From positions 329,001 through 393,000 of the forward strand of contig JACEFZ010025087.1 in NCBI GenBank assembly GCA_014155875.1: a stretch of 64,000 nucleotides of DNA, read 5' to 3'. This document shows positions 12,112 through 64,000 of this stretch, in pieces. Origin of the DNA: Cepaea nemoralis. Taxonomy: Eukaryota; Mollusca; Gastropoda; Stylommatophora; Helicidae. The notes under the pieces were generated by a model, which was given only the letters and a program-made list of their open reading frames with translations, ran no database searches and was not told where the DNA came from. The translations under genes were made by a program, and so were the position numbers. How positions within the stretch are numbered: the stretch's first letter is position 1; each line of letters opens with the position of its first letter.

Positions 12112-12333
12112 CTGATCTCAACTGCCAGAAGGATACACTTGAGAACAACATTACTCAAATCATGCAGGAGAAAGACGAAGCAACAAGGAGAGCAGATGAG
12201 GCATGTAACACAATAGACAAGGAGCGAGAAGAGCACAGGAAAATCACTCAGGAAATGGACGACACTCACAATGCAGCACTCACTGCACAAAGGGATGAAC
12301 TTACATCCAAGCATGATGAAAATGTGAAAAAAT
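12112..12333 (+). CDS. MTUS1-like: MTUS-like exon a (coiled coil)
   Basis: Acceptor ...aatctccacag precedes 12112 and donor gtacgtg starts at 12334. The exon begins with two bases completing a split codon and ends one base into the next, giving 73 whole codons. The peptide (DLNCQKDTLENNITQIMQEK..., later KEREEHRKITQEMDD) is highly charged, without prolines, and typical of a parallel coiled coil. The other two + frames hit stops. An upstream exon is required by the phase but I did not find it in this window. It joins to 18951 to read VKK-L-TQFHDRQ. Confidence 0.85.
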
Positions 12334-12529
12334 GTACGTGATTTTCTTTAAAATATGTTATTTGAAGTTGGTGTGAGCAATCAGTGTTTGCTGAAATGGA
12401 TAGATGGCTGATGCCATGCATAGAAAGGATGTTTGTGAAACTTGATTGATTGAAAAGTCTGCATATTGAACGAATGTGCATGATCATCTTGTGTTGCAGA
12501 ATGCCACTCTACAACTAGCCTCACAGTTT

Positions 12530-15500
12530 TGTTCTACTTCTCCCAACTCATGCCCAAAGTGTCTACATTATCTTGTGATGGTATTCATAGAGTTCTACTT
12601 CTCCCAACTCATGCCCCAAAGTGTCTACATTATCTTGTGACTGTATTCATGCTAGTTCTACTTCTCCCAACTCATGCCCCAAAGTGTCTACATTGTGACT
12701 GTATTCATGCTAGTTCTACTTCTCCCAACTCATGCCCCAAAGTGTCTACATTATCTTGTGACTGTATTCATGCTAGTTCTACTTCTCCCAACTCATGCCC
12801 CAAAGTGTCTACATTATCTTGTGACTGTATTCATGCTAGTTCTACTTCTCCCAACTCATGCCCCAAAGTGTCTACATTATCTTGTGACTGTATTCATGCT
12901 AGTTCTACTTCTCCCAACTCATGCCCCAAAGTGTCTACATTATCTTGTGACTGTATTCATGCTAGTTCTACTTCTCCCAACTCATGCCCCAAAGTGTCTA
13001 CATTATCTTGTGACTGTATTCATGCTAGTTCTACTTCTCCCAACTCATGCCCCAAAGTGTCTACATTATCTTGTGACTGTATTCATGCTAGTTCTACTTC
13101 TCCCAACTCATGCCCCAAAGTGTCTACATTATCTTGTGACTGTATTCATGCTAGTTCTACTTCTCCCAACTCATGCCCCAAAGTGTCTACATTATCTTGT
13201 GACTGTATTCATGCTAGTTCTACTTCTCCCAACTCATGCCCCAAAGTGTCTACATTATCATGTGACTGTATTCATGCTAGTTCTACTTCTCCCAACTCAT
13301 GCCCCAAAGTGTCTACATTATCTTGTGACTGTATTCATGCTAGTTCTACTTCTCCCAACTCATGCCCCAAAGTGTCTACATTATCTTGTTATGGTATTCA
13401 TGCTAGTTCTACTTCTCCCAACTCATGCCCCAAAGTGTCTACATTATCTTGTGACTATATTCATGCTAGTTCTACTTCTCCCAACTCATGCCCCAAAGTG
13501 TCTGCGTTATCTTGTGACTGTATTCATGCTAGTTCTACTTCTCCCAACTCATGCCCCAAAGTGTCTACATTATCTTGTGACTGTATTCGTGCTAGTTCTA
13601 CTTCTCCCAACTCATGCCCCAAAGTGTCTACATTATCTTGTGACTGTATTCATGCTAGTTCTACTTCTCCCAACTCATGCCCCAAAGTGTCTACATTATC
13701 TTGTGACTGTATTCGTGCTAGTTCTACTTCTCCCAACGCGTCAAAGTGTCTACATTATCTTGTGACTGTATTCATGCTAGTTCTACTTCTCCCAACTCAT
13801 GCCCCAAGTGTCTACATTATCTTGTGACTGTATTCATGCTAGTTCTACTTCTCCCAACTCATGCCCCAAAGTGTCTACATTATCTTGTGACTGTATTCAT
13901 GCTAGTTCTACTTCTCCCAACTCATGCCCCAAAGTGTCTACATTATCTTGTGATGGTATTCATGCTAGTTCTACTTCTCCCAACTCATGCCCCAAAGTGT
14001 CTACATTATCTTGTGACTGTATTCATGCTAGTTCTACTTCTCCCAACTCATGCCCCAAAGTGTCTACATTATCTTGTGACTGTATTCATGCTAGTTCTAC
14101 TTCTCCCAACTCATGCCCCAAAGTGTCTACATTATCTTGTGACTGTATTCATGCTAGTTCTACTTCTCCCAACTCATGCCCCAAAAGTGTCTACATTATC
14201 TTGTGACTGTATTCATGCTAGTTCTACTTCTCCCAACTCATGCCCCAAAGTGTCTACATTATCTTGTGACTGTATTCATGCTAGTTCTACTTCTCCCAAC
14301 TCATGCCCCAAAGTGTCTACATTATCTTGTGACTGTATTCATGCTAGTTCTACTTCTCCCAACTCATGCCCCAAAGTGTCTACATTATCTTGTGACTGTA
14401 TTCATGCTAGTTCTACTTCTCCCAACTCATGCCCCAAAGTGTCTACATTATCTTGTGACTGTATTCATGCTAGTTCTACTTCTCCCAACTCATGCCCCAA
14501 AGTGTCTACATTATCTTGTGACTGTATTCATGCTAGTTCTACTTCTCCCAACTCATGCCCCAAAGTGTCTACATTATCTTGTGACTGTATTCATGCTAGT
14601 TCTACTTCTCCCAACTCATGCCCCAAAGTGTCTACATTATCTTGTGACTGTATTCATGCTAGTTCTACTTCTCCCAACTCATGCCCCAAAGTGTCTACAT
14701 TATCTTGTGACTGTATTCATGCTAGTTCTACTTCTCCCAACTCATGCCCCAAAGTGTCTACATTATCTTGTTACTGGTATTCATGCTAGTTCTACTTCTC
14801 CCAACTCATGCCCCAAAGTGTCTACATTATCTTGTGACTGTATTCATGCTAGTTCTACTTCTCCCAACTCATGCCCCAAAGTGTCTGCGTTATCTTGTGA
14901 CTGTATTCATGCTAGTTCTACTTCTCCCAACTCATGCCCCAAAGTGTCTACATTATCTTGTGACTGTATTCGTGCTAGTTCTACTTCTCCCAACTCATGC
15001 CCCAAAGTGTCTACATTATCTTGTGACTGTATTCATGCTAGTTCTACTTCTCCCAACTCATGCCCCAAAGTGTCTACATTATCTTGTGACTGTATTCGTG
15101 CTAGTTCTACTTCTCCCAACGCGTCAAAGTGTCTACATTATCTTGTGACTGTATTCATGCTAGTTCTACTTCTCCCAACTCATGCCCCAAGTGTCTACAT
15201 TATCTTGTGACTGTATTCATGCTAGTTCTACTTCTCCCAACTCATGCCCCAAAGTGTCTACATTATCTTGTGACTGTATTCATGCTAGTTCTACTTCTCC
15301 CAACTCATGCCCCAAAGTGTCTACATTATCTTGTGACTGTATTCATGCTAGTTCTACTTCTCCCAACTCATGCCCCAAAGTGTCTACATTATCTTGTGAC
15401 TGTATTCATGCTAGTTCTACTTCTCCCAACTCATGCCCCAAGTGTCTACATTATCTTGTGACTGTATTCATGCTAGTTCTACTTCTCCCAACTCATGCCC

Positions 15501-17103
15501 CAAAGTGTCTACATTATCTTGTGACTGTATTCATGCTAGTTCTACTTCTCCCAACTCATGCCCCAAAGTGTCTACATTATCTTGTGACTGTATTCATGCT
15601 AGTTCTACTTCTCCCAACTCATGCCCCAAAGTGTCTACATTATCTTGTGACTGTATTCGTGCTAGTTCTACTTCTCCCAACGCGTCAAAGTGTCTACATT
15701 ATCTTGTGACTGTATTCATGCTAGTTCTACTTCTCCCAACTCATGCCCCAAAGTGTCTACATTATCTTGTGACTGTATTCATGCTAGTTCTACTTCTCCC
15801 AACTCATGCCCCAAAGTGTCTACATTATCTTGTGACTATATTCATGCTAGTTCTACTTCTCCCAACTCATGCCCCAAAGTGTCTACATTATCTTGTGACT
15901 ATATTCATGCTAGTTCTACTTCTCCCAACTCATGCCCCAAAGTGTCTACATTATCTTGTGACTGTATTCGTGCTAGTTCTACTTCTCCAACTCATGCCCC
16001 AAAGTGTCTACATTATCTTGTGACTGTATTCATGCTAGTTCTACTTCTTTCAACTCATGCCCCAAAGTGTCTACATTATCTTGTGACTATATTCATGCTA
16101 GTTCTACTTCTCCCAACTCATGCCCCAAAGTGTCTACATTATCTTGTGACTGTATTCGTGCTAGTTCTACTTCTCCCAACACGTCAAAGTGTCTACATTA
16201 TCTTGTGACTGTATTCATGCTAGTTCTACTTCTCCCAACTCATGCCCCAAAGTGTCTACATTATCTTGTGACTGTATTCATGCTAGTTCTACTTCTCCCA
16301 ACTCATGCCCAAAGTGTCTACATTATCTTGTGACTGTATTCATGCTAGTTCTACTTCTCCCAACTCATGCCCCAAAGTGTCTACATTATCTTGTGACTGT
16401 ATTCATGCTAGTTCTACTTCTCCCAACTCATGCCCCAAAGTGTCTACATTATCTTGTGACTGTATTCATGCTAGTTCTACTTCTCCAACTCATGCCCCAA
16501 AGTGTCTACATTGTCATGTGACTGTATTCATGCTAGTTCTACTTCTCCCAACTCATGCCCCAAAGTGTCTACATTATCTTGTGACTGTATTCATGCTAGT
16601 TCTACTTCTCCCAACTCATGCCCCAAAGTGTCTACATTATCATGTGACTGTATTCATGCTAGTTCTACTTCTCCCAACTCATGCCCCAAAGTGTCTACAT
16701 TATCTTGTGACTATATTCATGCTAGTTCTACTTCTCCCAACTCATGCCCCAAAGTGTCTACATTATCTTGTGACTGTATTCATGCTAGTTCTACTTCTCC
16801 CAACACATGCCCAAAGTGACAGCATTATCTTGTGACTGTATTCATGCTAGTTCTACTTCTCCCAACTCATGCCCCAAAGTGTCTACATTATCTTGTGACC
16901 GTATTCATGCTAGTTCTACTTCTCCCAACTCATGCCCCAAAGTGTCTACATTATCTTGTGACCGTATTCATGCTAGTTCTACTTCTCCCAACTCATGCCC
17001 AAAGTGTCTACATTATCTTGTGATGGTATTCATGCTAGTTCTACTTCTCCCAACTCATGCCCAAAGTGTCTGCGTTATCTTGTGACTGTATTCATGCTAG
17101 CTG
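12530..17103. repeat. Minisatellite array, 63-bp unit, about 72 copies
   Basis: Highly homogeneous tandem repeat with 63-bp period, containing 'tattcatgctagttctactt' then ctcccaactcatgccccaaag and tgtctacattatcttgtgac. It occupies most of the first host intron, starting about 200 bp after exon a. The unit is a multiple of three, so all + frames can stay open for hundreds of codons (CIHASSTSPNSCPKVSTLS and the shifted FMLVLLLPTHAPKCLHYLV). Variant copies are arranged in longer blocks: the same variants recur 1383 bp apart. Confidence 0.97.
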
Positions 17104-17189
17104 ACCCCTGCCCCTTGTTCCAGGAACCATGCCTTCCATGACGCTTCTGTCCAAACCATTGTGACATGTAATATGGGCACAGTAGTTTA

Positions 17190-17520
17190 GTTTCTATGAA
17201 AGGATATTGCTTACGAGCCAGTTTTCTTCAATGTTCAGATCTTTTACAATTTCAGTATATTTCTGCTTCTTGGTCCACACTATTCTGTGTTTCTGTGACA
17301 TTTGAGCTCTAAAGCCTCAATTTTCTTCTTTAGTGATTGCCAAATGGTCCATGACTGACATTCATATAACCCACAGGAAGGATGCATGTTCTCACACATT
17401 TGACTGTCATGTGTTTGCTGGTGTTGTGTCATATTTTCTCAATACTGTCTAATCTGTGCACTGCTGTGGTCAGTCTTCTTATGTCTTCTTTTGGACAGTC
17501 CCATTGCTTATGATTATTGA
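17190..17520 (-). mobile_element. Degenerate LINE reverse-transcriptase 3' fragment
   Basis: Read on the - strand with frame changes, this stretch resembles the region after the RT catalytic core of LINEs: a YEYLHS.I.SNGDCPKEDIRR-like block, TTAVHRLDSIEKI, then LYECQSWTIWQSLKKKIEALEL. Many breaks. Clade cannot be fixed. Confidence 0.5.
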
Positions 17521-17671
17521 GTGAAGATATTCACAATTTCTGACAATTTTCTATTTTATCATGGCCTTTGGTTGGTATGTAGTGTTCATACATCACACAA
17601 TTCTGCCACTGAAACAGTCAAGGCATGGTATGGGGTATAGGGTTAGACTGATCATTTCTGTGACAAGACAG

Positions 17672-17822
17672 TATAATAGTGGTCAAACACAAGTCCATGT
17701 GATACTGGTTACACCCAACCCATATGATACTGACCAAACAGAAGTACATGTGATACTTAAAGTCGCTAAGTGTCAACTTTTAAGTGACTTTAAATATCAC
17801 ATGTACTTCTGTTTGGCCAGTA
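17672..17822. repeat. Inverted repeat / hairpin at the head of the 50-bp array
   Basis: Arms of about 42 bp, 17728-17769 and 17779-17822, are nearly perfect reverse complements; each contains caaacagaagtacatgtgat or its complement, around a loop of about 9 bases. Immediately upstream (17672-17727) lies a diverged inverted unit of the array that follows. The array therefore begins with a head-to-head copy. Confidence 0.88.
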
Positions 17823-18672
17823 TCACATGTTTGACCACTATCATATGGGCTGTGTGTAATCATATCACATGGGCTTGTGTTTGCCCACTTTCATATGGGC
17901 TGTGTGTAATCATATCACATGGGCTTGTGTTTGCCCACTATCATATGGGATGTGTGTAATCATATCACATGGGCTTGTGTTTGCCCACTATCATATGGGC
18001 TATGTGTAATCATATCACATGGGCTTGTGTTTGCCCACTATCATATAGGATGTGTGTAATCATATCACATGGGCTTGTGTTTGACCACTATCATATGGGC
18101 TGTGTGTAATCATATCACATGGACTTGTGTTTGACCACTATCATATGGGCTGTGTGTAATTATATCACATGGGCTTGTGTTTGACCACTATCATATGGGC
18201 TGTGTGTAATCATATCACATGGACTTGTGTTTGACCACTATCATATGGGCTGTGTGTAATCATATCACATGGGCTTGTGTTTGAACACTATCATATGGGC
18301 TGTGTGTAATCATATCACATGGGCTTGTGTTTGACTTCTATCATATGGGCTGTGTGGCTGTGTGTAATCATATCACATGGACTTGTGTTTAACCACTATC
18401 ATATGGGATGTGTGTAATCATATCACATGGGCTTGTGTTTGACCACTATCATATGGGCTGTGTGTAATCATATCACATGGGCTTGTGTTTGACCACTATC
18501 ATATGGGCTGTGTGTAATCATATCACATGGGCTTGTGTTTGACCACTATCATATGGGCTGTGTTTGACTACTATCATATGGGATGTGTGTAATCATATCA
18601 CATGGACTTGTGTTTGACCACTATCATATGGGATGTGTGTAATATCACATGGGCTTGTGTTTGACCACTATC
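17823..18672. repeat. Minisatellite array, 50-bp unit, about 17 copies
   Basis: Period 50 bp, containing 'tcatatgggctgtgtgtaat' then catatcacatgggcttgtgt and ttgaccacta. A few copies carry small insertions (near 18350) or a partial unit (near 18560). Intronic, between host exons a and b. Confidence 0.95.
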
Positions 18673-18722
18673 AGCTGCATTACTTATGATTTTTATACTT
18701 GTACTTTTATACTTCTTTTTAT

Positions 18723-18950
18723 ACTGGTACTTTCATACTTTATACTTCTATATTTGATACTTATGAATTACTTATGATCACTGATTCTTCTCTTTCAGTG
18801 ACCCAGTTCCATGATAGACAGATTGACTGTGTTACAATTACTGTAATTTATGATCACTGATTCTTGTCTTTCAGTGACCCAGTTCCATGATAGACAGATT
18901 GACTGTGTTACAATTACTGTAATTTATGATCACTGATTCTTCTCTTTCAG
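18723..18950 (+). repeat. 76-bp tandem duplicates of a splice acceptor and exon start
   Basis: Three tandem copies of a 76-bp segment contain the polypyrimidine tract, the AG and the first about 30 bases of the next exon. AGs end at 18798, 18874 and 18950. Only the last copy continues into the full exon. The first two diverge after cagattgact into gtgttacaattactgtaatt, which leads back to the next acceptor. Using either upstream AG would add 76 or 152 bases (not multiples of three) and run into a TGA. Copy 2 has a G in the pyrimidine tract. The array probably arose by local slippage or duplication. Confidence 0.9.
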
Positions 18951-19006
18951 TGACCCAGTTCCACGATAGACAGATTGACTTGTTGCGGTTGGCCCATGAG
19001 AGACAG
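18951..19006 (+). CDS. MTUS1-like: MTUS-like exon b (56 nt)
   Basis: Acceptor ttctctttcag ends at 18950 and the donor gtaata starts at 19007. It has two bases completing the previous codon plus 18 codons (TQFHDRQIDLLRLAHERQ), ending in phase 0. The helical, charged composition continues the coiled coil. It joins in frame to the exon at 21141 (ISDMKNENKLDM). The exon is tiny and its acceptor is triplicated, so choice of the 3' splice site here is unusually constrained. Confidence 0.85.
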
Positions 19007-19169
19007 GTAATATGATGTCAACAATGATTGTGATTGACTTTTGTTAAGGTTGCTGTTGTTAGCCTGAAGCACTATGTCGAAGCCTGACAGATAAAGACTG
19101 TGTATGCCTGTCTGATCTCTGAAATGTAAAAATGCCAGGCCATACTAGTGATTAGAACCTGAATGGCAT

Positions 19170-19982
19170 ATTCAAAGGATTTCTGCAAGATAGGTTCCAC
19201 AAACTCTCACAAATAAGCACATATTTTAAAGGAACATAATTTGTTCTGAAATGTTGGAGCATTTTTATGCCGAGGGAGAGAACTTTTTGTCAAAGATCGT
19301 TACAGGTGACTAAACCTGGACACATCGTTTTGAGCCTGTGACAGAAATGTAGTCAATGGAGTGGCAGCATTCACAATCACCAAAAAGACAGAAACTCAAG
19401 ACAACTCGGCCAGCTGGAAAAGTTATCATCACTGTCTTGTGGGCAGCATTGATGGTGTGACTCTCGTGGTAGTGATGCCAAGAGTTGAGACAATCAGTTC
19501 TGAAACTTACATCAAAACTCTAACAAAACCCAACAAGTGGCTCCTCAGAGCTCGGCCTAACAAGAATCCAGCAGAACTGTTGCTCCAACACGACAATGCA
19601 TGCTCTCACACGTCAGAAAACACAGGAGGCAGTTGCCAAACTGAGCTCCATCATATACCCTTTTGTCTCAATCTGGATTCCTCTGATTGTCATCTTTTGG
19701 TGCACTAAAAATGCACTTCGTGGGGTAAGGTTTCATGATGATTAGGTTGCCTCATGCAGTGAATAAATGCTACATGAGCAGGACAAAACTTGGAACAGTC
19801 AAAACATGCATACATGTGTTTTGAACTGGCGTCACACGTACAGATTGATGAGGATTCACTAGAAGAATAGTATGTTTACAGGAAATGCTCATGTATATTG
19901 TTTGTAAATTTAATTCATTTTGAACAAATAGTTTCCACACACACAAAATTATGGTGGTTTACTTTCTGAATGTCCCTTGTAT
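19170..19982 (+). mobile_element. Second mariner-family element, degenerate
   Basis: A + strand mariner remnant inside a host intron. It can be read, with stops and frame changes, as IVTGD..TWTHRFEPVTEM, SMEWQHSQSPKRQKLKTTRPAGKV, then (from 19440) VGSIDGVTLVVVMPRVETIS, LRARPNKNPAELLLQHDNA, and LDSSDCHLL. The right end reads ggtttactttctgaatgtcc near 19955, a typical mariner terminus; the left end was not located. It belongs to a different mariner lineage from the copy at 2767. Confidence 0.82.
19291..19708 (+). pseudogene. mariner transposase catalytic-domain remnant
   Basis: The first catalytic block VTGD is at about 19300, followed immediately by a stop in place of the usual Glu. The second block, LLLQHDNACSHTS, is near 19580-19620. 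The third aspartate region reads NLDSSDCHLL. At least one frame change (near 19440) and several stops rule out function. Confidence 0.8.
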
Positions 19983-20044
19983 AATGTTGTCACATGTACT
20001 GGTTAAAATCTAATCCTTTACCCAGAATTCAGAGTGTAATGGCA

Positions 20045-20905
20045 TAGTATTAGTTGACACATCATTGGTTGTCACATCATTGGTTGTCACATCATTGATT
20101 GCCATACCATAGGTTTTCACATCATTAGTTGTCACATCATTGGTTGTCACATCATTGGTTGTCACATCATTGGTTGTCACATCATTGGTTGTCACATTAT
20201 TGGTTGTCACATCATTGGTTGTCACATCATTGATTGTCACATCATTGGTTGTCACATCATTGGTTGTCACATTATTGGTTGTCACATCATTGGTTGTCAC
20301 ATCATTGATTGTCACATCATTGGTTGTCACATCATTGGTTGTCACATCATTGATTGTCACATCATTGGTTGTCACATCATTGGTTGTCACATCATTGGTT
20401 GTCACATCATTGGTTGCCACATCATTGGTTGTCACATCATTGATTGTCACATCATTGGTTGTCACATCATTGGTTGTCACATCATTGATTGCCATACCAT
20501 AGGTTGTCACATCATTGGTTGTCACATCATTGGTTGTCACATCATTGGCTGTCACATCATTGGATGTCACACCATAGGTTGTCACATCATTGGTTGTCAC
20601 ACCATAAATTTGTCACATTGTTGATTGTCACATCATTGGTTGTCACATCATTGGTTGACACATCATTGGTTGTCACATCATTGGTTGTCACATCATTGAT
20701 TGTCACACCATAGGTTATCACATCATTGGTTGTCACACCATAGGTTATCACATCATTGGATGTCACACCATAGATTTGTCACATTGTTGATTGTCACATC
20801 ATTGGTTGTCACATCATTGGTTGTCACATCATTGATTGTCACATCATTGGTTGTCACATCATTGGATGTCACACCATAGGTTGTCACATCATTGGTTGCA
20901 TGAAA
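20045..20905. repeat. Minisatellite array, 15-bp unit, about 57 copies
   Basis: Tandem 15-bp unit 'ttgtcacatcattgg' with variants (attg, accataggt). It reads as (VTTND)n on - and (VVTSL)n on +, again because 15 is a multiple of three. The array lies in the intron between exons b and c. Confidence 0.96.
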
Positions 20906-21140
20906 AACAAACTGTCCTGGAAATATTGTCCTGAACTGGATTTGAACCACAAACTGTTGAAGATTTAGGCAGATTCCATAGTTCTATGCCACTCCTAGCC
21001 TCCAGTATGTATTCAAGTGCCTAGTTAAGTTTGCCTGTTATCCACTGTAAAAGATTAATGTGAATAACTGTACTTAGACTCAGTTACTTTATCTCTATTA
21101 GAAGTGTGATCATCTGTTTGAAAGAATATTGTTTTGACAG

Positions 21141-21246
21141 ATTTCAGATATGAAAAATGAGAACAAGTTAGACATGAATGCACTCAAGATTTCCCATCTA
21201 GAAGAGATTCAAGAACTAAGGAATAAACATGACAGTCAAATGGAAG
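21141..21246 (+). CDS. MTUS1-like: MTUS-like exon c (coiled coil)
   Basis: Acceptor gttttgacag ends at 21140; strong donor gtaagt starts at 21247. The exon has 35 codons plus one base (phase 1), with peptide ISDMKNENKLDMNALKISHL then EEIQELRNKHDSQME. Heptad-like leucines and charged residues continue the coiled coil. The phase-1 end matches the exon at 49715, giving the join ME-ELHKQHRNK. The following intron is about 28.5 kb, the longest in the window. Confidence 0.87.
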
Positions 21247-21377
21247 GTAAGTAAAGTTGTGGCTGGTGTAGATAAGTTGAATACAGAATACATAATCAAC
21301 GCTTTTACTGGTAAGCAAGGACAAGCAGGCAACACACTTTCTTCAGACATGGAATTCAGTTAATGTTTTTTCCTTTT

Positions 21378-22735: not shown

Positions 22736-22769
22736 CCAGCACCGCTGGTAAAGGGGTGCTTTCACTGCA

Positions 22770-49714: not shown

Positions 49715-49788
49715 AATTACACAAACAGCACAGGAACAAACTGGAAGACATTACACACAGATTTGAGGCAATAAAGCTGACACTTTCG
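49715..49788 (+). CDS. MTUS1-like: MTUS-like exon d
   Basis: Acceptor tattttctccacag ends at 49714; donor gtaaac starts at 49789. Two bases complete the split Glu codon contributed by either exon c or the alternative first exon, then 24 codons read LHKQHRNKLEDITHRFEAIK and LTLS. It ends in phase 0 and joins to EKLESLRGECDELARR. Strongly helical. This is the first exon common to both predicted isoforms. Confidence 0.88.
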
Positions 49789-53789: not shown

Positions 53790-53909
53790 ATTGCACTAGC
53801 CCCATATTTGAGTCTTCCTAAGGAGATAGAAAGTCTGAAGACTGTTCTGGAGATGAGAAATGAAGAGGTTCAGAAACTGCGAAGCAAAAATATGGACTTT
53901 GAGAAACAG
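53790..53909 (+). CDS. MTUS1-like: MTUS-like exon f (40 codons, conserved core)
   Basis: Acceptor ttattttctggaaag ends at 53789; donor gtaggc starts at 53910; 120 bases, phase 0/0. The peptide IALAPYLSLPKEIESLKTVL then EMRNEEVQKLRSKNMDFEKQ aligns with the vertebrate MTUS block around 'ELESLKAVLEIKNEKL' (recalled family sequence). The acceptor tract is weak because AAAG rather than CAG precedes the exon. Confidence 0.88.
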
Positions 53910-53967
53910 GTAGGCCTAGTGTCATTTAATTAGTTTGTTATTCTGTTACTGTTTTTATGGTTAATTT

Positions 53968-54411: not shown

Positions 54412-55032
54412 GAGTTGGTTAGTTAGTCGCAGTTTCCAACTTCACGGCAACGGGTCGTCCCCATTATGCTCCGTTCATGTGCCAGTGAATATCGCAAAAA
54501 TGCTCCTCACTGCTCAATGTGAATAGTGGAACAGACAGGAATCTCATCAAGCCAACAGCTTGCACAGGTACACTATGCATAATGCAGCCGCCAGAATGCC
54601 AACACAGAAGTCCTCCATGAAAATTACAGTTCATCATCGATGGAATTCGGCAGTCACCAGAAAGACTTCATTGACCCAGTCTCTGTCCACAGGGTGACCC
54701 ACTGAAAGTGCCGCACAAAGCACAAACTCCTTAGCTCCAGCGACGACTCCCAGGAGTCTCCTGAAAAATGCACTCGTGAACTGAAAAGGTAAACCAGTCA
54801 ATTCAGCAACAGTCGGCCGCCATCATTCTGAACATGCAGTTATTACTATAAACAACCATGGACAGATGTAAAAGCATTCCTCACGAAATTCACAGCTCAC
54901 AGTGTCGTGCCACACACTCAGTAGCAGGGCGACGTAACCATGCACTACCAGTCCAACATGAGGAAAATGTGAATGTAAACCATGGCCACAAGCGTAAACA
55001 CTCCAGAGGCCTTAACGGTTCAAATGCCTATC
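54412..55032. mobile_element. Interspersed repeat family E, copy 1
   Basis: About 600 bp, homologous to 56316-56928. Shared parts: aacgggtcgtccccattatg, ctccgttc-tgtgccagtgaa, acactatgcataatgc, gaacatgcagt and cacagctcacagtgtcg. It contains an extra piece (about 54713-54790) related to the reverse complement of SINE family D. No coding capacity recognised. Confidence 0.8.
54713..54790 (-). mobile_element. SINE family D fragment inside family E copy
   Basis: Complement of the body of the SINE at 37685-37905: gcacaaagcacaaactcctt, gcgacgactcccaggagtct and gcactcgtgaactg correspond to its gtttacgag...agactcatgcgggtcgtcgc...ggagttcgtgctttgc stretch. Head and tail are not preserved. Confidence 0.7.
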
Positions 55033-55149
55033 TGCCATGAAACAAAAATGAATATTTTCTAATAATTAATTTCAATGAATGTTATTTTTTTGTGTGATGA
55101 TGTTATCGTTTTGGTTTCATTTTGGAGATGATATTTCTCATTTTGTGTT

Positions 55150-55245
55150 TATTTTTTTGGCGCTTGAAGGACATCAACCTGAAGGTTGTTTTACTAGACA
55201 ATCTTGTGTTCAGTAGTTTGCCATTACTTTCTGAATGAGAAGTAA
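55150..55245 (-). mobile_element. SINE family C fragment
   Basis: Reverse-oriented remnant with cttgtgttcagtagtttgcc and attactttctgaatg. Diverged and short. Confidence 0.6.
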
Positions 55246-55767
55246 ATGTTGAGGTTCAAGTGACTGATGTAGGGAATGGATCCCGTACTCTGCCATCAGC
55301 ACGTTGGAAGTTTAATCACAAGAGCATTAAGGCCCACTGGCCACGCTGACTGCCAGTGTAATATGTGTAGATCTGAGGCAGATGTGCAACACAATATTCA
55401 GCTTTCTCATATGCCTGTGCCAAATTTGGGCTCAATATCAACTTGGAGAAGACGGTAGTTATGTACCAGCCAGCTCCAGGGAATAATCACACTGTGCCGA
55501 ATATCAAAGTGAATGATCATAGACTAAGTGTTGTGGACAAATTCACCTATCTTGGCAGCACTGTGTCACAAGCTGCCACAATTGATGATGAAGTGAATGC
55601 AAGAATCACCAAGGCCAGCGTGGCCTTTGGCAGACTACAAAAATGTGTGGGACAGAAATGAAATAAGCTTGCAAACAAAGCTGAAAGTCCATAAAGCAAT
55701 TGCATTATACACATTGCTATATGCTTGTGAAACCTGGACTGTTTATCAGCGACACGCGGATAGGGAA

Positions 55768-56174
55768 AGGGGGCTGCATGGTCTCGAGGTATGGTGTCCG
55801 CCTCGAGGGCTGGAGGTCCCGGGTTCAAGCCCCGGTAAGGATCAGGATTTATTCACATGGACTTCTAGTAAAAATTTCCCCTGGTCTCTGGGTAGTGAGA
55901 TCGGACGCCCGTGTGTATTGTTGCGCACATAAAAAATCCCTTGGCAGTTGGAAATTGAAAAAGAGTAGCCTAACGGCGCTGCCTGGGCAAAATTTCGAGT
56001 TAAAAATGTACCCAAAGTATTTCAGGATCCTCACCGGTGCTACAGAGTTCGTGCGTTGAGCTGAGTTTCTCCAGACTCAGGTTTGAGTTAGGAGGAGAAC
56101 GGAGCACTTATGGGTTGCACCCGTGTGCCATGATGTTGATCCGTCGACTAAACAAACAAACAAACATAAACAAA
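55768..56174 (+). mobile_element. tRNA-derived SINE family B, near full length
   Basis: The tRNA-like head gggctgcatggtctcgaggt has a B box ggttcaagccc at 55822-55832. The body includes agatcggacgcccgtgtgta, gccgttaggcta (as complement agcctaacggcgc) and aaaatttcgagttaaaaatg; the 3' part includes gatgttgatccgtcgactaa and a (caaa)n tail. Remnants of a duplication (acgc..tagg.aaa) occur on both sides in the LINE. Related sequences form the inverted pair at 49157-49643. Confidence 0.87.
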
Positions 56175-56315
56175 CGCTAGGAAATTAAACCACTTCCACA
56201 CAGTCTGCCTTAGGAAGCTATTGAAGATTTAATGGCAAGACAAGATCCCAGACACTGAATTCCTAGAAAGAGCATCCATGCCCAGTATCCACACTCCACT
56301 AATGAAGAATCAGAT

Positions 56316-56928
56316 AGTTAGTTAGTTAGTTAGTTAGCCACGATTCCAACTTCACAGCAACGGGTCGTCCCCATTATGCTCCGTTCCTGTGCCAGTGAAT
56401 ATCACATAAAACGCTGCCCAATGTGAAAAGTGGAAAAGACAGGAGTCTCGACAAACAACAGCCCGCACAGATACACTGTGCATAATGCCGCCGCCAGAAT
56501 GTCAACACAATAGTCCGCCACGAAACATCCAGTTTATCTCTGATGGAATCGGCAGTCATTTTCCCATCTGGATGTTTCCTAGATGTTCACCCACACAGTC
56601 CACGAAAATACAGTTCATCGTCGATGGCAGTGGCAGTCAACCAGAAGCCCAGCAGCCACGCATTTCTGCATAAGGCAAAAGCCGGTCAACTCTGGGACAT
56701 AGCCAGCTGCCATCGCTCCGAACATGCAGTCACGTTCCAAAAAACCTTGGGCAGATTCAAAAGCATTTCACACGAAACTCACAGCTCACAGTGTCGCGCC
56801 ACGCACGCACTCAGTAGCAGGGCGACGGAACCATAGCCTCCTTAGTCGCCTCTTACGACATGCGTGGTAGGCTACAGTGTTGCTATTCTTTGCTTCCCTT
56901 ATGGGCCCCGGCAACACATGGGAGGAAG
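56316..56928. mobile_element. Interspersed repeat family E, copy 2 with TSD
   Basis: 613 bp, flanked by an exact 11-bp duplication aagaatcagat at 56305-56315 and 56929-56939. Removing the insert and one duplicate restores LINE coding in frame (MKNQI-WWAGHLTHM). It starts with agttagttagttagttag and ends near cccggcaacacatgggagga. It has no coding region and no obvious inverted termini. The 11-bp TSD suggests a retroposon, but the class is unresolved. Confidence 0.85.
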
Positions 56929-57375
56929 AAGAATCAGATTTGGTGGGCTGGTCACTTGACTCACATGACAGATCACAGGCTTCCTAAACAAATTTTTTTA
57001 TGGCGAGCTGTGTTATGGTAAATGCTCTCAAGGTGGCCAGATGAAACGCTTTAAAGACACTGAAGATCTCACTAAAAGCTTTTGAAATTCATTATGACAC
57101 CTGTGAGACTGCTGCCAAATACCAAAATTCATGGTGTACATCATTATGCAAGGGTGCAGTCACTTGTGAAGCAACTAGGACTGCAAGAGCTGTGAAGAAA
57201 AGGCTGGACAGAAAAACCACTGCAGGAGATCCTCCTACTGGAAAGTCAAGCATTCTTTGCCCATATTGTCAAAGAACATTTCAAGCCAAAATAGGCCATA
57301 TCAGCCATCTTAGAACTCACGGCTCCATACTTTCAACCCCACTGGATGAAATGAATGGTCATCATCATTCTTGAT

Positions 57376-57709
57376 GGACAAACAACATGTGTAGATCTAC
57401 ATTATTGGTTGATTGTCTTACGTTTGTGTTTGTACTGTATGTAGCAGTTAATGGGTATTTGATGATTACAGTTTTTTTTCATGTTGTCATTCTCATGGTA
57501 TTATTTATGACTGTGACTATCTGTCAGAATGTTTAGGTATGTTTAAATGTGAGTATTTAAGTAACAGCTTTTTGTACTGAGTGTACAGTTTAGATTCTGA
57601 ATATATCCCCCCCCCCCAATTATGTTGATCAAGTTGTGCTTGGTAAATAATGAGTTGCATGTGATTCATTTTCAAGTGAGATATGTTAAAGAGAAAACTA
57701 ATATTTCAG
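57376..57709. other. Intronic sequence with acceptor for exon g
   Basis: No recognised repeat except a C-run at 57608-57617. It ends in the polypyrimidine-poor acceptor ctaatatttcag. Confidence 0.45.
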
Positions 57710-57807
57710 CTGGAAGAAATGCCCATAGCCAGAGAAAAGATTATCTCATTACAGCAGAAAGTGGAAAACCTGGAAGCTATCATCAACATCAAAACTGACC
57801 ATGAAAA
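57710..57807 (+). CDS. MTUS1-like: MTUS-like exon g
   Basis: Acceptor atatttcag ends at 57709; donor gtgagt starts at 57808. 32 codons plus two bases: LEEMPIAREKIISLQQKVEN then LEAIINIKTDHE and a split Lys. The phase-2 end fits the exon at 63110 beginning with one base. Coiled-coil composition. Confidence 0.87.
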
Positions 57808-57989
57808 GTGAGTATATAGATCAAGTACTGCAGAATTCACACATACATGGGTAGATTTATAGAGGTGGGATGACCAGCCCCTTTCCTTAACTCTTCACAG
57901 ACTGTGAATATAGAATATTTATATTTGGTGTATTAGAGCAACTCTGCAGTATGGTTTGAAACAAGACATATATCTATTTATCAGTGTGT

Positions 57990-58091
57990 CATTTAAAACA
58001 ACATCCCGGATGAATGCAACTGAAGAAGAACTTCATATGTGGAAGAATTATGAAATCCATGAACATAACACAAAATCTCAATCACAGTCAC
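57990..58091 (+). repeat. Left arm of a 4-kb-spaced inverted repeat
   Basis: About 100 bp, reverse-complementary to 62069-62175 with few differences. It includes the 3' tail of a family A retroposon (cccggatgaatgcaactgaa) and the host flank beyond it (gaacttcatatgtggaagaa, ccatgaacataacacaaaat). It therefore arose by inverted duplication after that retroposon inserted. Confidence 0.88.
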
Positions 58092-58095
58092 AGAA

Positions 58096-58440
58096 ATAAA
58101 CTGGTTTCAAGTTGTTATCATATATGATAACTTGAAACCAGTTTATTTTTATACATACATTGACGCTTTATTTCTCATGGTTATTTCCACCAACATTGAT
58201 GCACTTATCCCATCGTTTTATCAGTCCTCCCAAACCGGCTGCATAGACCTGCGTGCTTTGTTTTCATTTACCTACCATCCCACAGAACTGTGTGACTTAC
58301 TTATTGACTCGCCACGGTAACTTTTTCTACCCAGCTATGCACTGCTTTACGGGTTAAACTTTTTTCAGCATAAACACTGAAAACCCACCTTGGCAGAAGA
58401 CATTTCGTGAATGACGCTGAAGTTGAATGCGAAGTGAAAA
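58096..58440 (-). mobile_element. Degenerate mariner-like fragment with palindromic end
   Basis: It begins with a palindrome at about 58097-58152 (aataaactggtttcaagtt and its complement around atcatatatgat). Read on - it gives FSVYAEKSLTRKAVHSWVEK and later LIKRWDKCINVGGNN, matching an N-terminal helix-turn-helix part and the C-terminal end of mariner-type transposases, with the middle missing. Strongly deleted. Confidence 0.65.
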
Positions 58441-58674
58441 CGTGTGTATGTGTGTGTCTTTGTATGTATATGTGTATGTATATCTCAGTGTGGCTTTTTA
58501 CCTGTGTATGTTTCTTTGTCTCTCTCTATCTCTCTCTCTGTGCTTGAGTCTTCTGTGTCTCTGTGTATCTATCTGTTTGTCTCAATATATCTGTCTCAGT
58601 GTATGTACGTTTGTATGCAGCCATGCATGTTTGTGTTTTAAATTGTGTATGTATGCTTCAATTTGTGATTTGTG
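58440..58674. repeat. Low-complexity TG/TCTC-rich stretch
   Basis: Interrupted tgtgtatgtatg and tctctctc runs. The + frames (MYVCVFVCICV...) are repeat-driven. Confidence 0.7.
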
Positions 58675-58700
58675 GTAGCATCTCATCTCATCTCATCTCA

Positions 58701-60686
58701 TCATGTTCCTCTTGTACCTTGCGGTGTCGAGGTGAAGTATAAACTTCGTGAGAGTGCCCGATTATGTGCTTCATATATCGATATTCCCATGGACTCTGCT
58801 ATTCCCTCCGTCCAACGTTTACGTGGTCGGCCTCTTCCTCTGTTTCCATCTGGTCTGTACATCATTGCTTGTTGTGGTATGCTGTTGACTGGTAACCTAC
58901 TTGCATGGCCAAACCATTTGACTTGCTGCTTTCTAATAAAATCTAGTGCTGCTTTAACCCCCACTTTAGTCCTGATTTCTTCATTTCTGATCTTATCTCT
59001 TCTTGATACGTTGAGTATTCTTCTCAGGAACCTCATTTCTGTTGTGATTTTTCTTTTCTCTTTTTCTGTCATTGTCCAGGTTTGGCATTGGTAGCATAGA
59101 GTTGGTAGGAAGATTGTGTTGTAAAGTGCTTTCTTAGTAGTTACTGATACATGTTTGTTCTTTAGTATTGGTGCCATTTGTCCAATGAGTTGATTTGCCT
59201 TATTGCACCTATTTTCGATCTCGTCTTCTGATCTGCCATTTGATGATATTATACTTCCCAGGTACTTGAAACTCTTCACCTGTTTCAAGGGATGTTCGTT
59301 TAGGTGAATTGTTGTTGTTTGTTCTTCTTTAGTTATAGTCATTACCTCTGTTTTGCTTGTGCTAATTTTCATGTTATGTTCCCTACACATTTCATTTAGA
59401 CTATTCATGTGGTCTTGTAATTCAGCTTCTGATTTTGCTATTAGTGCTTGGTCGTCTGCAAACAGGAGTTCTCTAATGGTTAGATTTGCAGATGGTTCTT
59501 CTTCTGTGTTCTCGTCATGCGGTATTCTTGCTGTCTCTGCTTGGCTGGTTTCTTTACATATGTTGTCTATATATGTTATGAACAAGAGAGGGGACAGGAC
59601 ACAACCTTGTCGTACTCCAGATCTTATGGTGAAGGGTTCTGAGTGTCCTCCAGTTGCTCTCACTATGCATTCACTGTTGTTGTATAAACTTCTACATAGG
59701 TTTGTTAGATGTGTACTCACTCCATATTGTTTAAGGATTTGCCACAACTTGTTTCTATCTACTCTATCGAATGCCTTTTCTTGGTCGACAAAGGCTAAGT
59801 AGAGTGTTTCATTGAATTCAATTGATTTTTCTATAAGTTGTCTAAGAGCAAAAATTGCATCTGTGCATCCTTTGTTTTTCCTAAATCCAAGTTGTGTTTC
59901 GCTTAGCTGGGGTTCTAAAGTAGTTCGTAATCTTTTTTCAAGAATTTTGCAAACTATTTTCCCAGTATGACTCAACAGTGAAATGCCTCTGTATTGTGTG
60001 CAGTCTCTTTTGCTGCCTTTGTTTTTCCAAATTGGGATAATTATGGCATTTCCCCAATCTCGTGGTGTCTGTTGTTCTACCCAAACATGATTGAATAGTC
60101 TATGTAGCCAAGCTGTTCCTACTTCTCTTGCTGCTTTAATTAGTTCATTTGGTATTTCATCCTGTCCTGGTGATTTGTTCAATGGGGCTAATCTGATGGC
60201 TTCTATAATTTCTTCTTTTAGTATGTCTGGTTCTAGTTCTTCGGTGACATCTGTATAGGTCTCTTGAATTCCTGTGACATCTGATGGGATGTTGAGAAGT
60301 TGTTCGAAATACTGCTTCCATCTTATTAGGATTTGTTTTTGTTCACTTATTGGTTCTCCATTTTCGCTGTTAATTATTTCAGTTGGATCAAAGGGTTCTC
60401 CTCTGGCTCGCATTGCACCTATCTTTTTGTAGAAGTTTCTAGTTGCCTCCTTGTAGTTTTTATTTAGGGTTTCTCCATAATCTTCCCAGTCTTTTTGTTT
60501 TTCCCTCTTTACTATTCTATTCACATGTCTTCTCGCTATTCTATATTCTATGCGATCACATTCCTGTTTGCTCTTCAACCACTTTTTATATTTTTCCTTT
60601 TTGTCTTTTACCGCTTTCTTTACTTCTGCGTTCCACCAACTTGTTATTTTCTTTATTCCGTGTTTTGCGTTTTTTCGTGGTCCCAC
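58701..60686 (-). CDS. LINE reverse transcriptase, open 661-codon frame
   Basis: An uninterrupted frame on - encodes the RT half of the polyprotein. Seen in order: linker WWNAEVKKAVKDKKEKYKKW; APLNKSPGQDEIPNELIKAA; IIIPIWKNKGSKRDCTQYRG; RT motif A in LAFVDQEKAFDRVDRNKLW; SGVRQGCVLSPLLFITY; the catalytic LLFADDQALIA (FADD); KYLGSIISSNGRSEDEI; LPTLCYQCQTWTMTEKEKRK; and the terminal RILNVSRRDKIRNEE ... QQVKWFGHASRLP ... GRPRKRW blocks. The frame's first codon here is a GTG just after the junction with the endonuclease frame, so it is not a true start; the domain is part of a longer EN-RT protein separated by one base. Confidence 0.92.
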   Translation of the reverse strand: MGPRKNAKHGIKKITSWWNAEVKKAVKDKKEKYKKWLKSKQECDRIEYRIARRHVNRIVKREKQKDWEDYGETLNKNYKEATRNFYKKIGAMRARGEPFDPTEIINSENGEPISEQKQILIRWKQYFEQLLNIPSDVTGIQETYTDVTEELEPDILKEEIIEAIRLAPLNKSPGQDEIPNELIKAAREVGTAWLHRLFNHVWVEQQTPRDWGNAIIIPIWKNKGSKRDCTQYRGISLLSHTGKIVCKILEKRLRTTLEPQLSETQLGFRKNKGCTDAIFALRQLIEKSIEFNETLYLAFVDQEKAFDRVDRNKLWQILKQYGVSTHLTNLCRSLYNNSECIVRATGGHSEPFTIRSGVRQGCVLSPLLFITYIDNICKETSQAETARIPHDENTEEEPSANLTIRELLFADDQALIAKSEAELQDHMNSLNEMCREHNMKISTSKTEVMTITKEEQTTTIHLNEHPLKQVKSFKYLGSIISSNGRSEDEIENRCNKANQLIGQMAPILKNKHVSVTTKKALYNTIFLPTLCYQCQTWTMTEKEKRKITTEMRFLRRILNVSRRDKIRNEEIRTKVGVKAALDFIRKQQVKWFGHASRLPVNSIPQQAMMYRPDGNRGRGRPRKRWTEGIAESMGISIYEAHNRALSRSLYFTSTPQGTRGT

Positions 60687-61647
60687 ATGTTATTTTTGCA
60701 GTATTTAAAATGCTTGATTTGAACATCTCCCATTCTTCTTCCACTGTTTTTCTCTCTGTAGGTAATTTTTCAAAGAGTTCAGTTAGTTCTTTCTCATAAT
60801 TTTCCCTTACTGCCTCGTCTTTAAGGTTTTTTAAGTTTACTGATTCGCATGGCATGTATTTTCCTGCTCTTTGTTTTCTTCTTCTGATTGTTCTTATTGT
60901 GGCAACGACTGCTTTATGATCTGTGTTTATACTGAAATTGGGCACTGCCCTTGCATCTAATATATTTCTCTTTCTGTTATTTCTTGTTAATATAAAATCA
61001 ATTTGGCTTTTAGTATCTAGATCGTTCCATTTATACCATGTGTATACTTGTGAATCTTTATGTTTATAGAATGTGTTTGTTATATAGAGGTCGTGTTGGC
61101 TGCAAAACTCTAATAGTCTACTTCCGTTATCATTCCTTTCATTATGCTGATCTCCAAATGCTCCCAGATGTTTTTCTATGCCCATTCTGTTATGTCCTAG
61201 TCTTGCATTGAAGTCTCCCATAACTATGATGTTGTCCTGCTTGTCTATTTTATTTAGCATGTCATGTATGTCTTCGTAGAAGTCCTCGCATTCTTGCTCA
61301 TTATTGTTTGCATTACATGGTGCGTATATTTGTACATATGTTGTAATTGTTTGTTCTTTTATTCTCACTGTTATGATTCTTTCTGATATATATTTTATTT
61401 CTAGTATTCCTCTTGCTAGCCATGGTTCGATGACTATTCCCACACCGTGTTTTGCCCTTTCTTGCTGTTCTACTCCAGAGTAAACAAATGTGTAACTGTG
61501 GTGGAGCTCCTTGCATCCTTTCCCCTTTGTTCTGGTGTCCGCTATTCCCATCAGTCCAATTTTCCTCTCTTCCATTGTTTCTATAAGCTCCTCTTCTTTA
61601 CTATTGAAACCACAGACGTTGATTGTGCCTATTTTTTGAGTCGCTGG
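60586..61647 (-). pseudogene. LINE AP-endonuclease half, frame broken from RT
   Basis: On - the frame reads IGTINVCGFNSKEEELIETM, then MEERKIGLMGIADTRTKGKG, VQIYAPCNANNNEQECEDFY, NIIVMGDFNARLGHNRMGIE, YTWYKWNDLDTKSQIDFIL and NTDHKAVVATI (terminal Asp-His). The catalytic blocks are present. The frame overruns into out-of-frame sequence and ends at 60586, while RT coding begins in another frame at about 60686; an extra base in the run ccc (60682-60685 region) explains this. The upstream leader has further stops. One indel separates this copy from a continuous EN-RT frame. Confidence 0.85.
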
Positions 61648-62068
61648 TCTATCTCTTAGTCCATTAACATTGCCGGGTCGATATCCGTTTGGGTCAGTCC
61701 GTTTATACTTCTTAGTTTTTCTACGAGCAGTATGAAGATCCCTTGCCGGCTTGCTAGGCCAGTCGCAGGTTTAGGACACAAATCTGACCACAGGGAGTCC
61801 ATCCCCTATGGCGAGCCATAGCCCCGTTAGCCCATGACCTCGCGGTCATGGTTGCCCGGTCTGCACCACGTGGAGGTGGGGGTTGGCTTGTGTAGTCTGC
61901 GGGTCATCGGCAGGCTACTAATTTTCGCTCTTCACCCCTCCTGGGAGAGGCTAGCCGATCCTAACCCTGCTGGCTGCAGGGCCAGGCGCATTCCACACCT
62001 TGCGGTAGCAAACCCATTTATTATATGTAAAGCATAGGATATATACTATACAAATGACAACATTTCAG

Positions 62069-62175
62069 TGACTGTGATTGAGATATTTTTGTGTTATGTT
62101 CATGGATGTCATAATTCTTCCACATATGAAGTTCTTCTACTTCAGTTGCATTCATCCGGGATGTTGTTTTAAATG
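62069..62175 (-). repeat. Right arm of the inverted repeat
   Basis: Reverse complement of 57990-58091 (see that entry). It consists of host sequence with the target site of the family A retroposon and the tail of that retroposon. Confidence 0.88.
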
Positions 62176-62280
62176 TAATTGCATCGTGCCAGTTTACAGC
62201 AGAGCTGCAATACTTGTGCTTTTTGGCTGACACATCTGACTTCTGCAGGCATTTGTTGACCAGGTTAACCTTCCCGGGTG
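62134..62280 (-). mobile_element. Retroposon family A, complete copy with TSD
   Basis: 147 bp in - orientation, flanked by catatgaagtt at 62123-62133 and 62281-62291 (11-bp target duplication). It starts, on -, cccgggaaggttaacctggt and ends gcaactgaagtagaag. Part of it is duplicated in the left inverted arm. Confidence 0.9.
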
Positions 62281-62483
62281 CATATGAAGTTGATGCTCTT
62301 GAGTATTTGTCCAGGGAGCATATGTATGTCACTGCAGGCATACAAGGGCTAGTAGTTATTGGATTTTTGTAATCAATCAGCTGACATCAAATAGTATAAC
62401 AGTAATGTTGCTGAATGAGTCATGAACAACGCAGCAGTTGTCAGAGCAGCTGTGTAATTAAAAATCTGGTTTAATGTGCAAAG

Positions 62484-62717
62484 CCGGCCTCTCTGACCTA
62501 GGAGTTAACGTCTTTCTCCGTAATACCGTATATTCTCTTGAGTAACATAACCTGTGCAAGAATCGTTAGCGGTTCTCGCCGCGTTGGTAACTTACGGGGA
62601 ATGTGAGCCAGTCGCTCAGAAACAATGGCAAACTACTGAGCGTAATCTTGCCTAGTACATCAACAGCAGCTGAAAAATACTGATGTTGACTGCAACGTCC
62701 TGTATATGCCCCAAAAC
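62484..62717 (+). mobile_element. SINE family C, full-length copy with TSD
   Basis: 234 bp with an exact 12-bp target duplication taatgtgcaaag at 62472-62483 and 62718-62729. The head ctctctgacctaggagttaa resembles a pol III A box region and gcggttctcgcc a diverged B box. The tail part contains cgctcagaaacaatggcaaa, ctactgagcgtaatcttgcc, agcagctgaaaaatactgat and gttgactgcaacgtcctgta. Partial relatives: 9600-9690, 21378-21500, 22600-22735, 47800-47935 and 55150-55245. Confidence 0.88.
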
Positions 62718-62729
62718 TAATGTGCAAAG

Positions 62730-63109
62730 AGGATTAAGACAGGGCTTTAACAATACAACACAATTGCATCCTCATATCACCCAAGTGGCACAGATTGAAG
62801 TGGGTAGGAAAGTAAATGAGGAGGTTTTACACATGATTGTACATAATTCAACCAATAACTTCATGATTTACTTTAAGGAATTCCAGAAGAACTGCCATGA
62901 ACATATAAAAAATGTAAATGTAGTATTTGGTTTTCTACAATATGCATGAAGGTAGCTGTGAGCTTAGTTACTAGTTTTCTTTTATGAAACATTGAATGTA
63001 CCTACAAATGCTTAAGCGTATTTGAAGTAAACAATGTTGAATTTATGTATCAGCATTGATCTTACACATATGTTAATTGTATCGGTAATTATCATTGAAC
63101 TGTTCACAG
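62730..63109. other. Intronic sequence upstream of last exon
   Basis: An 88-codon + frame (62683-62949) overlaps SINE sequence and shows no family motifs. The rest is AT-rich intron ending in the acceptor gaactgttcacag. Confidence 0.4.
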
Positions 63110-64000
63110 GCAACTGCATGAGAAATGTCAGATCCTGATGCGCAAGTATGATCGTGAGTCACGTGCCAACAAGCGCCTGTCAATGGATTATGAGCAGGTT
63201 GTCTGGCGGATGTCACAGAGTTCAGAGTTTGGGTCATCTGAGAGCCTGACAAAGAGACACTTCAGTCGGTCTCCTCCACGCAGTAAGGAAGGATCCCCTG
63301 ACACTCGACAGCGAGCTGCATCACCAGTCTGTGGCCAGTCCGATGTGATTATGCGTGTGAAAAAGCGAAGCAGTCATAGCATCAGTGAAGGTGACAGAAA
63401 GTTGAGATCAAGGTCAGAAACGTTTGTAGTGGAGAAAACAGAAAGCAGTGACAGTCACTCTCCATCATTGAGCCCACAGCTGAAACTAAAACGATGGAGG
63501 AAGAAATCCCAGGCCGATGAGGCTGCTGATAAATGCAAAGATCTTGACCAAATGTGCCATTCTGCAGGTGCGGAGATCTTGCCTGACCCTTGTAGGCAGC
63601 AAATGCAAAGTATCAGTTTGAGTTTGAATGATGTCAATAACTCCAACATGGAGTCATCTGATCTGGCTGACTCTTATGGTAGGTCTTCATCTGGGGTCAG
63701 CGACTCTGGGATGTGTGATAGTATTAGCCGGTCAGATGTTCTGGATTGCTCCATTGTTAGTACAGATTCTGAATGGGGGACCTCAGTTAACCTTTCCAGG
63801 AATTGTGACTCCACTTTAGAAGATCTTGAGTCAGGCCCAGAGGCCGGAGACTACCATTCCCTGAACAACATCACAATGATTGAGGTGACAGGGTCATCCT
63901 GCAACACTGGCATTGGTAATGTTTGTATGAACACTGTCAGCAGTGCTGTTCCCACAAGTTATGAAAACAGAGCTCAGTATCAACATGAAGATCACGAACA
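63110..64000 (+). CDS. MTUS1-like: MTUS-like last exon in window: end of coiled coil and Ser-rich tail
   Basis: Acceptor tgttcacag ends at 63109. One base completes the split Lys, then the frame stays open to the right edge (296 codons, no stop). It starts QLHEKCQILMRKYDRESRAN then NKRLSMDYEQVVWRMSQSSE, the hallmark C-terminal MTUS block (vertebrate NKRLSMENEELLWKL as recalled). After it comes a low-complexity region rich in Ser/Asp with SP sites (HFSRSPPRSKEGSP, SDSHSPSLSPQLK) and basic patches (RVKKRSSHS, LKRWRKKSQ). Vertebrate MTUS1 ends soon after the WKL block with a short SPRRSP-type tail, so this tail of more than 250 residues is unusually long. The stop codon is outside the window. 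Confidence 0.9.

What the first reader, a model, noticed from the sequence alone, without database searches (positions are those of the whole stretch)
12112..64000. MTUS1/ATIP-like gene hidden between repeats, with no long ORFs of its own
Eight small exons with consistent phases (1, 0, 1, 0, 0, 0, 2 at their ends) join into one coiled-coil protein ending in the MTUS hallmark block. Each exon is overshadowed by repeat-derived ORFs of up to 692 codons. An ORF-based reading would call the minisatellites as genes and miss this one completely.
Basis: partly seen in the sequence, partly recalled or inferred. Interest (0 to 1): 0.75.

Follow-up and report, generated by a model that had tools for sequence, protein, structure and literature searches.

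The report
Snail MTUS-family microtubule gene, split exons
This is an ordinary protein-coding gene of a land snail, a relative of the vertebrate microtubule-associated MTUS genes, whose mostly short exons are spread through long introns rich in tandem repeats and transposons.

Summary
The exon chain is real. All eight exons and their end phases (1,0,1,0,0,0,2) are borne out by proteins of other snails. The closest homologue, from Candidula unifasciata, is 81% identical over the 181 residues searched; Biomphalaria and Dreissena relatives are named MTUS1 and MTUS2 homolog. The window's assembly (3.47 Gb, unnamed; size fits Cepaea nemoralis) holds the stop codon 91 bases past the window, an upstream exon, and a second copy with the same exon order. 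Exons of the two copies show purifying selection (pN/pS 0.26). The orthologue is predicted as long helices plus a disordered tail; an MTUS-like microtubule scaffold is the likeliest role, inferred. Corrections: the last exon has its own 300-codon ORF, no ORF of 150 or more codons overlaps an exon, two of the longest ORFs are LINE genes, and MTUS1 in particular is not shown. No RNA reads were available. Side find: a 76-bp tandem triplicates one splice acceptor. Real, ordinary, low interest.

The parts
   Evidence: tblastn P0001 E 3.8e-9, acceptor ctacag, donor gttggc; 22 of 27 residues identical
   Evidence: 64 of 74 residues identical to P0001
18951..19006 (+). exon e3, 56 nt, phase 1 in, 0 out; its first 30 nt are repeated upstream by the 76-bp tandem
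   Evidence: 18 of 19 residues identical to P0001
21141..21246 (+). exon e4, 106 nt, phase 0 in, 1 out
   Evidence: 33 of 35 residues identical to P0001
49715..49788 (+). exon e5, 74 nt, phase 1 in, 0 out; ELHKQHRNKLEDITHRFEAIKLTLS
   Evidence: 24 of 25 residues identical to P0001
50402..50500 (+). exon e6, 99 nt, phase 0 in, 0 out
   Evidence: 33 of 33 residues identical to P0001
53790..53909 (+). exon e7, 120 nt, phase 0 in, 0 out; its Dreissena equivalent is absent from isoform X2
   Evidence: 37 of 40 residues identical to P0001; P0026 versus P0027
57710..57807 (+). exon e8, 98 nt, phase 0 in, 2 out
   Evidence: 31 of 33 residues identical to P0001
63110..64000 (+). exon e9, last coding exon, runs off the window; TAG stop ends 91 bases past the window end; holds the RANKRLSMDYEQVVWRMSQS block and the tail
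   Evidence: 239 of 292 aligned residues identical to P0001; stop read in L009
18772..18984 (+). 76-bp tandem, 2.8 copies: acceptor plus first 30 nt of exon e3 (one base different); copies 1 and 2 are potential decoy acceptors (exon side would start at 18799 and 18875)
12531..17100 (.). 63-bp minisatellite in intron e2-e3, source of ORFs of 350-447 codons
22768..28506 (.). 36-bp minisatellite in intron e4-e5, source of the 692- and 495-codon ORFs
58704..61770 (-). LINE ORFs (reverse transcriptase PF00078 and endonuclease PF14529) in intron e8-e9

Best explanation
A protein-coding gene of the MTUS family in a stylommatophoran land snail (clade inferred from the closest homologue), and, of two copies in this genome, the one nearer to Candidula P0001. 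Nine exons in the window, at least one exon upstream of it and the stop codon just past it encode an almost unbroken helical stretch of about 310 residues, expected to pair as a coiled coil, and a tail of about 290 residues predicted disordered. Shown: exon chain, phases, homology, selection on the exons, predicted helix of the orthologue. Inferred from vertebrate relatives: the coiled coil self-associates and an N-terminal disordered region (outside the window) binds microtubules, so the protein stabilises or organises microtubules and the spindle. The minisatellites, LINEs and mariner pieces are intron filling and take no part in the protein.
For: P0001 Candidula, E 9.1e-87, 81% identity over the searched 181 residues. 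All nine window exons hit by tblastn of P0001. Of 17 homologues examined, 10 align without gaps across all eight junctions, 1 (P0009) has a gap at one junction, 6 do not cover or do not align at one or more junctions. P0022 Biomphalaria is named microtubule-associated tumor suppressor 1, P0026 Dreissena MTUS candidate 2 homolog. Own genome: 16 matches at E <= 1e-3 on two contigs; stop codon and an upstream exon found. Copy A versus copy B over 313 codons: pS 0.71, pN 0.19, ratio 0.26 (bootstrap 0.21-0.33), 155 of 275 differences at third positions. AlphaFold2 of P0001 on 9 sequences: helices 30-243, 245-278, 280-345, 10-residue blocks up to pLDDT 97, then disorder; mean pLDDT 62, pTM 0.26. ATIP isoforms share a C-terminal region with coiled-coil motifs and ATIP3 binds microtubules (PMC8147298, passages).
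Against: No RNA reads seen. No vertebrate sequence was reached, so the link to vertebrate MTUS rests on names given to two molluscan relatives and on my recall of the vertebrate block. The session's Pfam copy gives no family at E <= 0.01 for the 518-residue joined protein; what PF27558.1, precomputed on homologues, describes is not told by any search. Some splice sites are weak: on my rough score the acceptor before 57710 has -3.1 and the donor after 12333 has 2.2, and the acceptor aaag before 53790 and the donor gttggc after 4613 look unusual by eye. The PDB searches gave only weak hits to helical proteins (occludin, E 0.0059; apolipoprotein A-IV, E 1.5e-4 with the profile), which I take as composition. 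Microtubule binding is untested.
Confidence: 0.93

Rival explanations
1. A refinement rather than a contradiction: the gene is the molluscan counterpart of CCDC69, or the single counterpart of MTUS1, MTUS2 and CCDC69 together, rather than of MTUS1 in particular.
For: CCDC69 is stated to belong to the MTUS family (PMC12311101, Discussion passage). The two named molluscan relatives are called MTUS1 and MTUS2 homolog.
Against: The Biomphalaria and limpet relatives are 739-961 residues with long N-terminal regions, unlike a short CCDC69 (its length is recalled).
Confidence: 0.4
2. The exons are remnants of a dead copy: a pseudogene after the land-snail genome duplication.
For: Copy B in the same genome has frame breaks in the counterparts of exons e7 and e9, so decay or assembly indels occur in this pair; copy A carries a tandem duplication over an exon start.
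Against: Copy A has no stop or frame break in 582 codons in the window or in the rest of the last exon; pN/pS 0.26 between copies; 33 of 33 residues identical to Candidula in exon e6.
Confidence: 0.03
3. The long minisatellite ORFs are genes and the exon chain is chance.
For: ORFs of up to 692 codons. In the 36-bp array the open frame has more synonymous changes than expected, 63 against 46.9.
Against: A frame of the same array with a stop in its consensus unit shows the same excess (64 against 46.9), so I read it as positional mutation bias, not coding. The exon chain matches proteins from ten named mollusc genera.
Confidence: 0.01

Closest known systems
Candidula unifasciata unnamed protein P0001 (633 aa)
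   Same: Same exon chain from e1 to the end, no gap at any of the eight junctions, 81% identity over the searched core
   Different: P0001 begins at a Met that in this genome is internal to an exon continuing upstream with homology to Biomphalaria, so its start may be annotated too late
Biomphalaria glabrata microtubule-associated tumor suppressor 1 (P0022, 961 aa)
   Same: Whole helical core with all eight junctions ungapped
   Different: 54% identity in the last-exon tail; most of its long N-terminal region was not found in the window or in the 87 kb upstream that were searched
Candidula P0004 and copy B of the same genome (contig C21543)
   Same: Same exon order, and the same exon borders where I read them
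   Different: 51% identity in the tail for P0004; copy B has frame breaks in two exons, by assembly error or decay
Vertebrate MTUS1/ATIP, MTUS2/TIP150, CCDC69
   Same: C-terminal coiled-coil region; family statements in PMC8147298 and PMC12311101 (passages)
   Different: Not compared by sequence here; the ATIPs are said to share 396 C-terminal residues, while here a tail of about 290 residues follows the coil

Membership tests
MTUS family (MTUS1/MTUS2/CCDC69) | Homology to proteins named MTUS by an independent annotator | tested here: met
   P0022 Biomphalaria 'microtubule-associated tumor suppressor 1', E 2.0e-151; P0026 Dreissena 'microtubule-associated tumor suppressor candidate 2 homolog', E 2.3e-83, both with the A2 profile
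MTUS family (MTUS1/MTUS2/CCDC69) | Long C-terminal coiled coil | tested here: met
   Orthologue P0001 predicted helical from 30 to 345, 9 sequences, blocks up to pLDDT 97, pTM 0.26; self-association not modelled
MTUS family (MTUS1/MTUS2/CCDC69) | Conserved block near the end of the coil (NKRLSM-like) | tested here: met
   Met among molluscs: N329, K330, R331, S333, M334 of P0001 are invariant in A1 (9 rows) and A2 (6 rows); outside those rows P0003 has NKTLSM and P0016 KKRMSM. That vertebrates share the block is recalled; a paper search for one such string found 0
MTUS1 in particular (ATIP) | Closer to vertebrate MTUS1 than to MTUS2 and CCDC69 | not testable with these tools
   No row named as vertebrate was listed by the three protein searches
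MTUS1 in particular (ATIP) | Disordered N-terminal microtubule-binding region | tested here: inconclusive
   Lies outside the window; one upstream exon read at L010:4585-4811 and a weak hit (E 0.051) about 47 kb further upstream; no SxIP motif in the 582 window codons
MTUS family (MTUS1/MTUS2/CCDC69) | Binds or stabilises microtubules | not testable with these tools
   Needs an experiment

The most novel reading that the evidence does not exclude
Land snails kept two MTUS copies after their genome duplication. In copy A of this species a recent 76-bp tandem has put two extra complete acceptors, each with the first 30 nt of exon e3, in front of the true one. Reading on from either meets a stop after 20 codons, so the tandem could act as a splice switch that lowers or truncates the protein.
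Probability: 0.1. Interest if true: 0.4.

Novelty: new member of a known kind. Interest (0 to 1): 0.15.

Why it matters
It is a clean example of a conserved gene of mostly short exons inside introns that are up to 85% tandem repeat, so it is useful as a test case for reading raw eukaryotic sequence. It also adds a gene pair that fits the duplication at the base of land snails and slugs. It does not change the picture of the MTUS family.

Tried and rejected
Splice-site scanning alone put 18951-19006 first of two candidates for one missing exon, but did not list 49715-49788 among its 21 candidates for the other; homology found it. I first took 53823 as the start of exon e7; homologues showed 53790. 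The 518-residue joined query was built before exons e1 and e5 and the true start of e7 were known, so it lacked them.

Pfam gave nothing at E <= 0.01 for the joined protein, P0001, P0008 or P0012, and a SHE3 hit below its cut-off for P0002. PDB searches gave no hit that I take as meaningful. Rfam at gathering scores and the tRNA scan were empty. The third protein search, aimed at vertebrates, gave 6 proteins among 330 candidates, none named as vertebrate. A paper search for 'microtubule-associated tumor suppressor' with 'snail' listed nine papers, none on molluscs by title; one for a recalled vertebrate string found 0. No fold search was run, because coiled-coil models match any long helix.

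Minisatellite ORFs as genes were rejected by the frame test of the 36-bp array; counts in the 63-bp and 15-bp arrays are small. Synonymous differences between the copies are near saturation, so only pN/pS is given; a first run with one block out of register is not used. Rows dropped: the tree used 23 rows, those in which I recognised the start of the last-exon block, out of 37 proteins plus the window, with P0036 left out though recognised; the junction table used 17 of 37 proteins; the codon test left out the parts of copy B after its frame breaks and the tail. The tandem total uses 30 merged intervals made from the 44 rows.

Full report
What is there. The joined query found 21 proteins at E <= 1e-3 among 545 candidates, the best from the land snail Candidula unifasciata (P0001, 81% identity over the 181 residues searched). 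P0001 also has a non-exon match at 8447-9202 with E 0.004, inside a degenerate LINE, and its reversed sequence reaches E 0.020, on the coiled-coil exon 12112-12333, so the weakest true exon at E 4.4e-6 stands clear of noise.

Junctions. Of 17 homologues examined, 10 are ungapped across all eight junctions, P0009 has a gap at one, and 6 do not cover or do not align at one or more. P0009, P0010, P0023 and P0024 come from contigs whose longest is 1.6-4.0 kb and which encode 397-743 residues in one piece; I read these as spliced transcripts of other species, which the sources do not say. In Dreissena, isoform X2 lacks exactly the 40 residues matching exon e7 (P0026 against P0027), so this phase 0-0 exon is skipped there. 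The Candidula annotation used mapped RNA-seq introns (PMC8496239, passages), but whether this gene had reads is not stated in what I saw.

The genome. The assembly holding the window has 3.47 Gb in 26,579 contigs and is unnamed; the window is C23283:329001-393000. The size fits the about 3.5 Gb draft of Cepaea nemoralis (PMC11177401, passage); the species name is inference. The last exon reads 326 codons to a TAG that ends 91 bases past the window. An exon upstream of the window (read by eye as L010:4585-4811) ends in phase 0 as exon e1 requires and matches Biomphalaria beyond the Candidula start. A further N-terminal piece some 47 kb upstream is only a weak hit, E 0.051.

Second copy. The same search found seven matches on contig C21543 in the same order, two of them pieces of the last exon; tblastn added counterparts of exons e1, e3 and e5. 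A tree of 23 last-exon tails puts window, P0012 and P0001 together (100/100) and P0004 with Arion P0031, P0011 and P0035 (100/98). P0015 joins the first set at 92/89 and the two sets are sisters at 93/93, both under the program's mark for firm support. This fits the whole-genome duplication at the base of Stylommatophora reported from Arion (PMC9392753, abstract and passages), but only Candidula and Arion are named species in these sets. Between copies A and B, 313 codons in nine blocks give pS 0.71, pN 0.19, ratio 0.26 (bootstrap 0.21-0.33), with 73, 47 and 155 differences at codon positions 1, 2 and 3: the exons have been under purifying selection. Copy B has frame breaks in the counterparts of exons e7 and e9; decay and assembly indels cannot be told apart here.

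Repeats and ORFs. Tandem arrays cover 24,383 of 64,000 bases, 85% of the intron before exon e3 and 51% of the 28-kb intron before exon e5; three of the eight introns hold none of the listed arrays. The 692-codon ORF is wholly minisatellite; the frame test of its array shows no coding signal. The 662- and 394-codon ORFs are a LINE on the minus strand. No ORF of 250 codons or more overlaps an exon except the 300-codon ORF of the last exon itself.

How it works. The orthologue P0001 is predicted as helices 30-243, 245-278 and 280-345 with a disordered tail from about residue 346. The vertebrate ATIPs are said to share a C-terminal region with coiled-coil motifs, and ATIP3 to lie along microtubules and to restrain EB1 (PMC8147298, passages). 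The best guess is a self-associating microtubule-associated scaffold; every step beyond the helix is inference.

Splice decoys. A 76-bp tandem at 18772-18984 repeats the polypyrimidine tract, the acceptor and the first 30 nt of exon e3, with one base different in the exon part. Reading on from the first or second copy meets a stop after 20 codons. The copy B stretch around its e3 counterpart shows one such acceptor in the 111 bases read. Whether the decoys are used is unknown.

Noticed in passing
window 18772-18984: 76-bp tandem repeats the acceptor and first 30 nt of exon e3; two upstream copies look like usable decoy acceptors that lead to a stop.
   Followed up: partly
   Followed up: yes
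window 53790-53909: Phase 0-0 exon whose Dreissena counterpart is skipped in isoform X2; in copy B of this genome the counterpart has a frame break.
   Followed up: partly
L011, L012, L013 (contig C21543): Second MTUS copy in the same genome with the same exon order and frame breaks in two exons.
   Followed up: partly
window 58704-61770 (-): LINE with reverse transcriptase and endonuclease ORFs in the last intron.
   Followed up: partly
window 7823-11399 (+): Degenerate LINE, by eye over this span; reverse-transcriptase match (PF00078, 6.5e-14) in 9865-10515, in the intron e1-e2.
   Followed up: no
window 2979-3979 (-) and about 19250-19870 (+): Mariner-like transposase fragments, named by eye: the first has a weak HTH_41 match in 3251-3757; the second, tested over 19334-19705, had no Pfam match.
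   Followed up: no
P0001 (Candidula): Annotated start Met is internal to an exon that continues upstream in this genome; the start may be annotated too late.
   Followed up: partly
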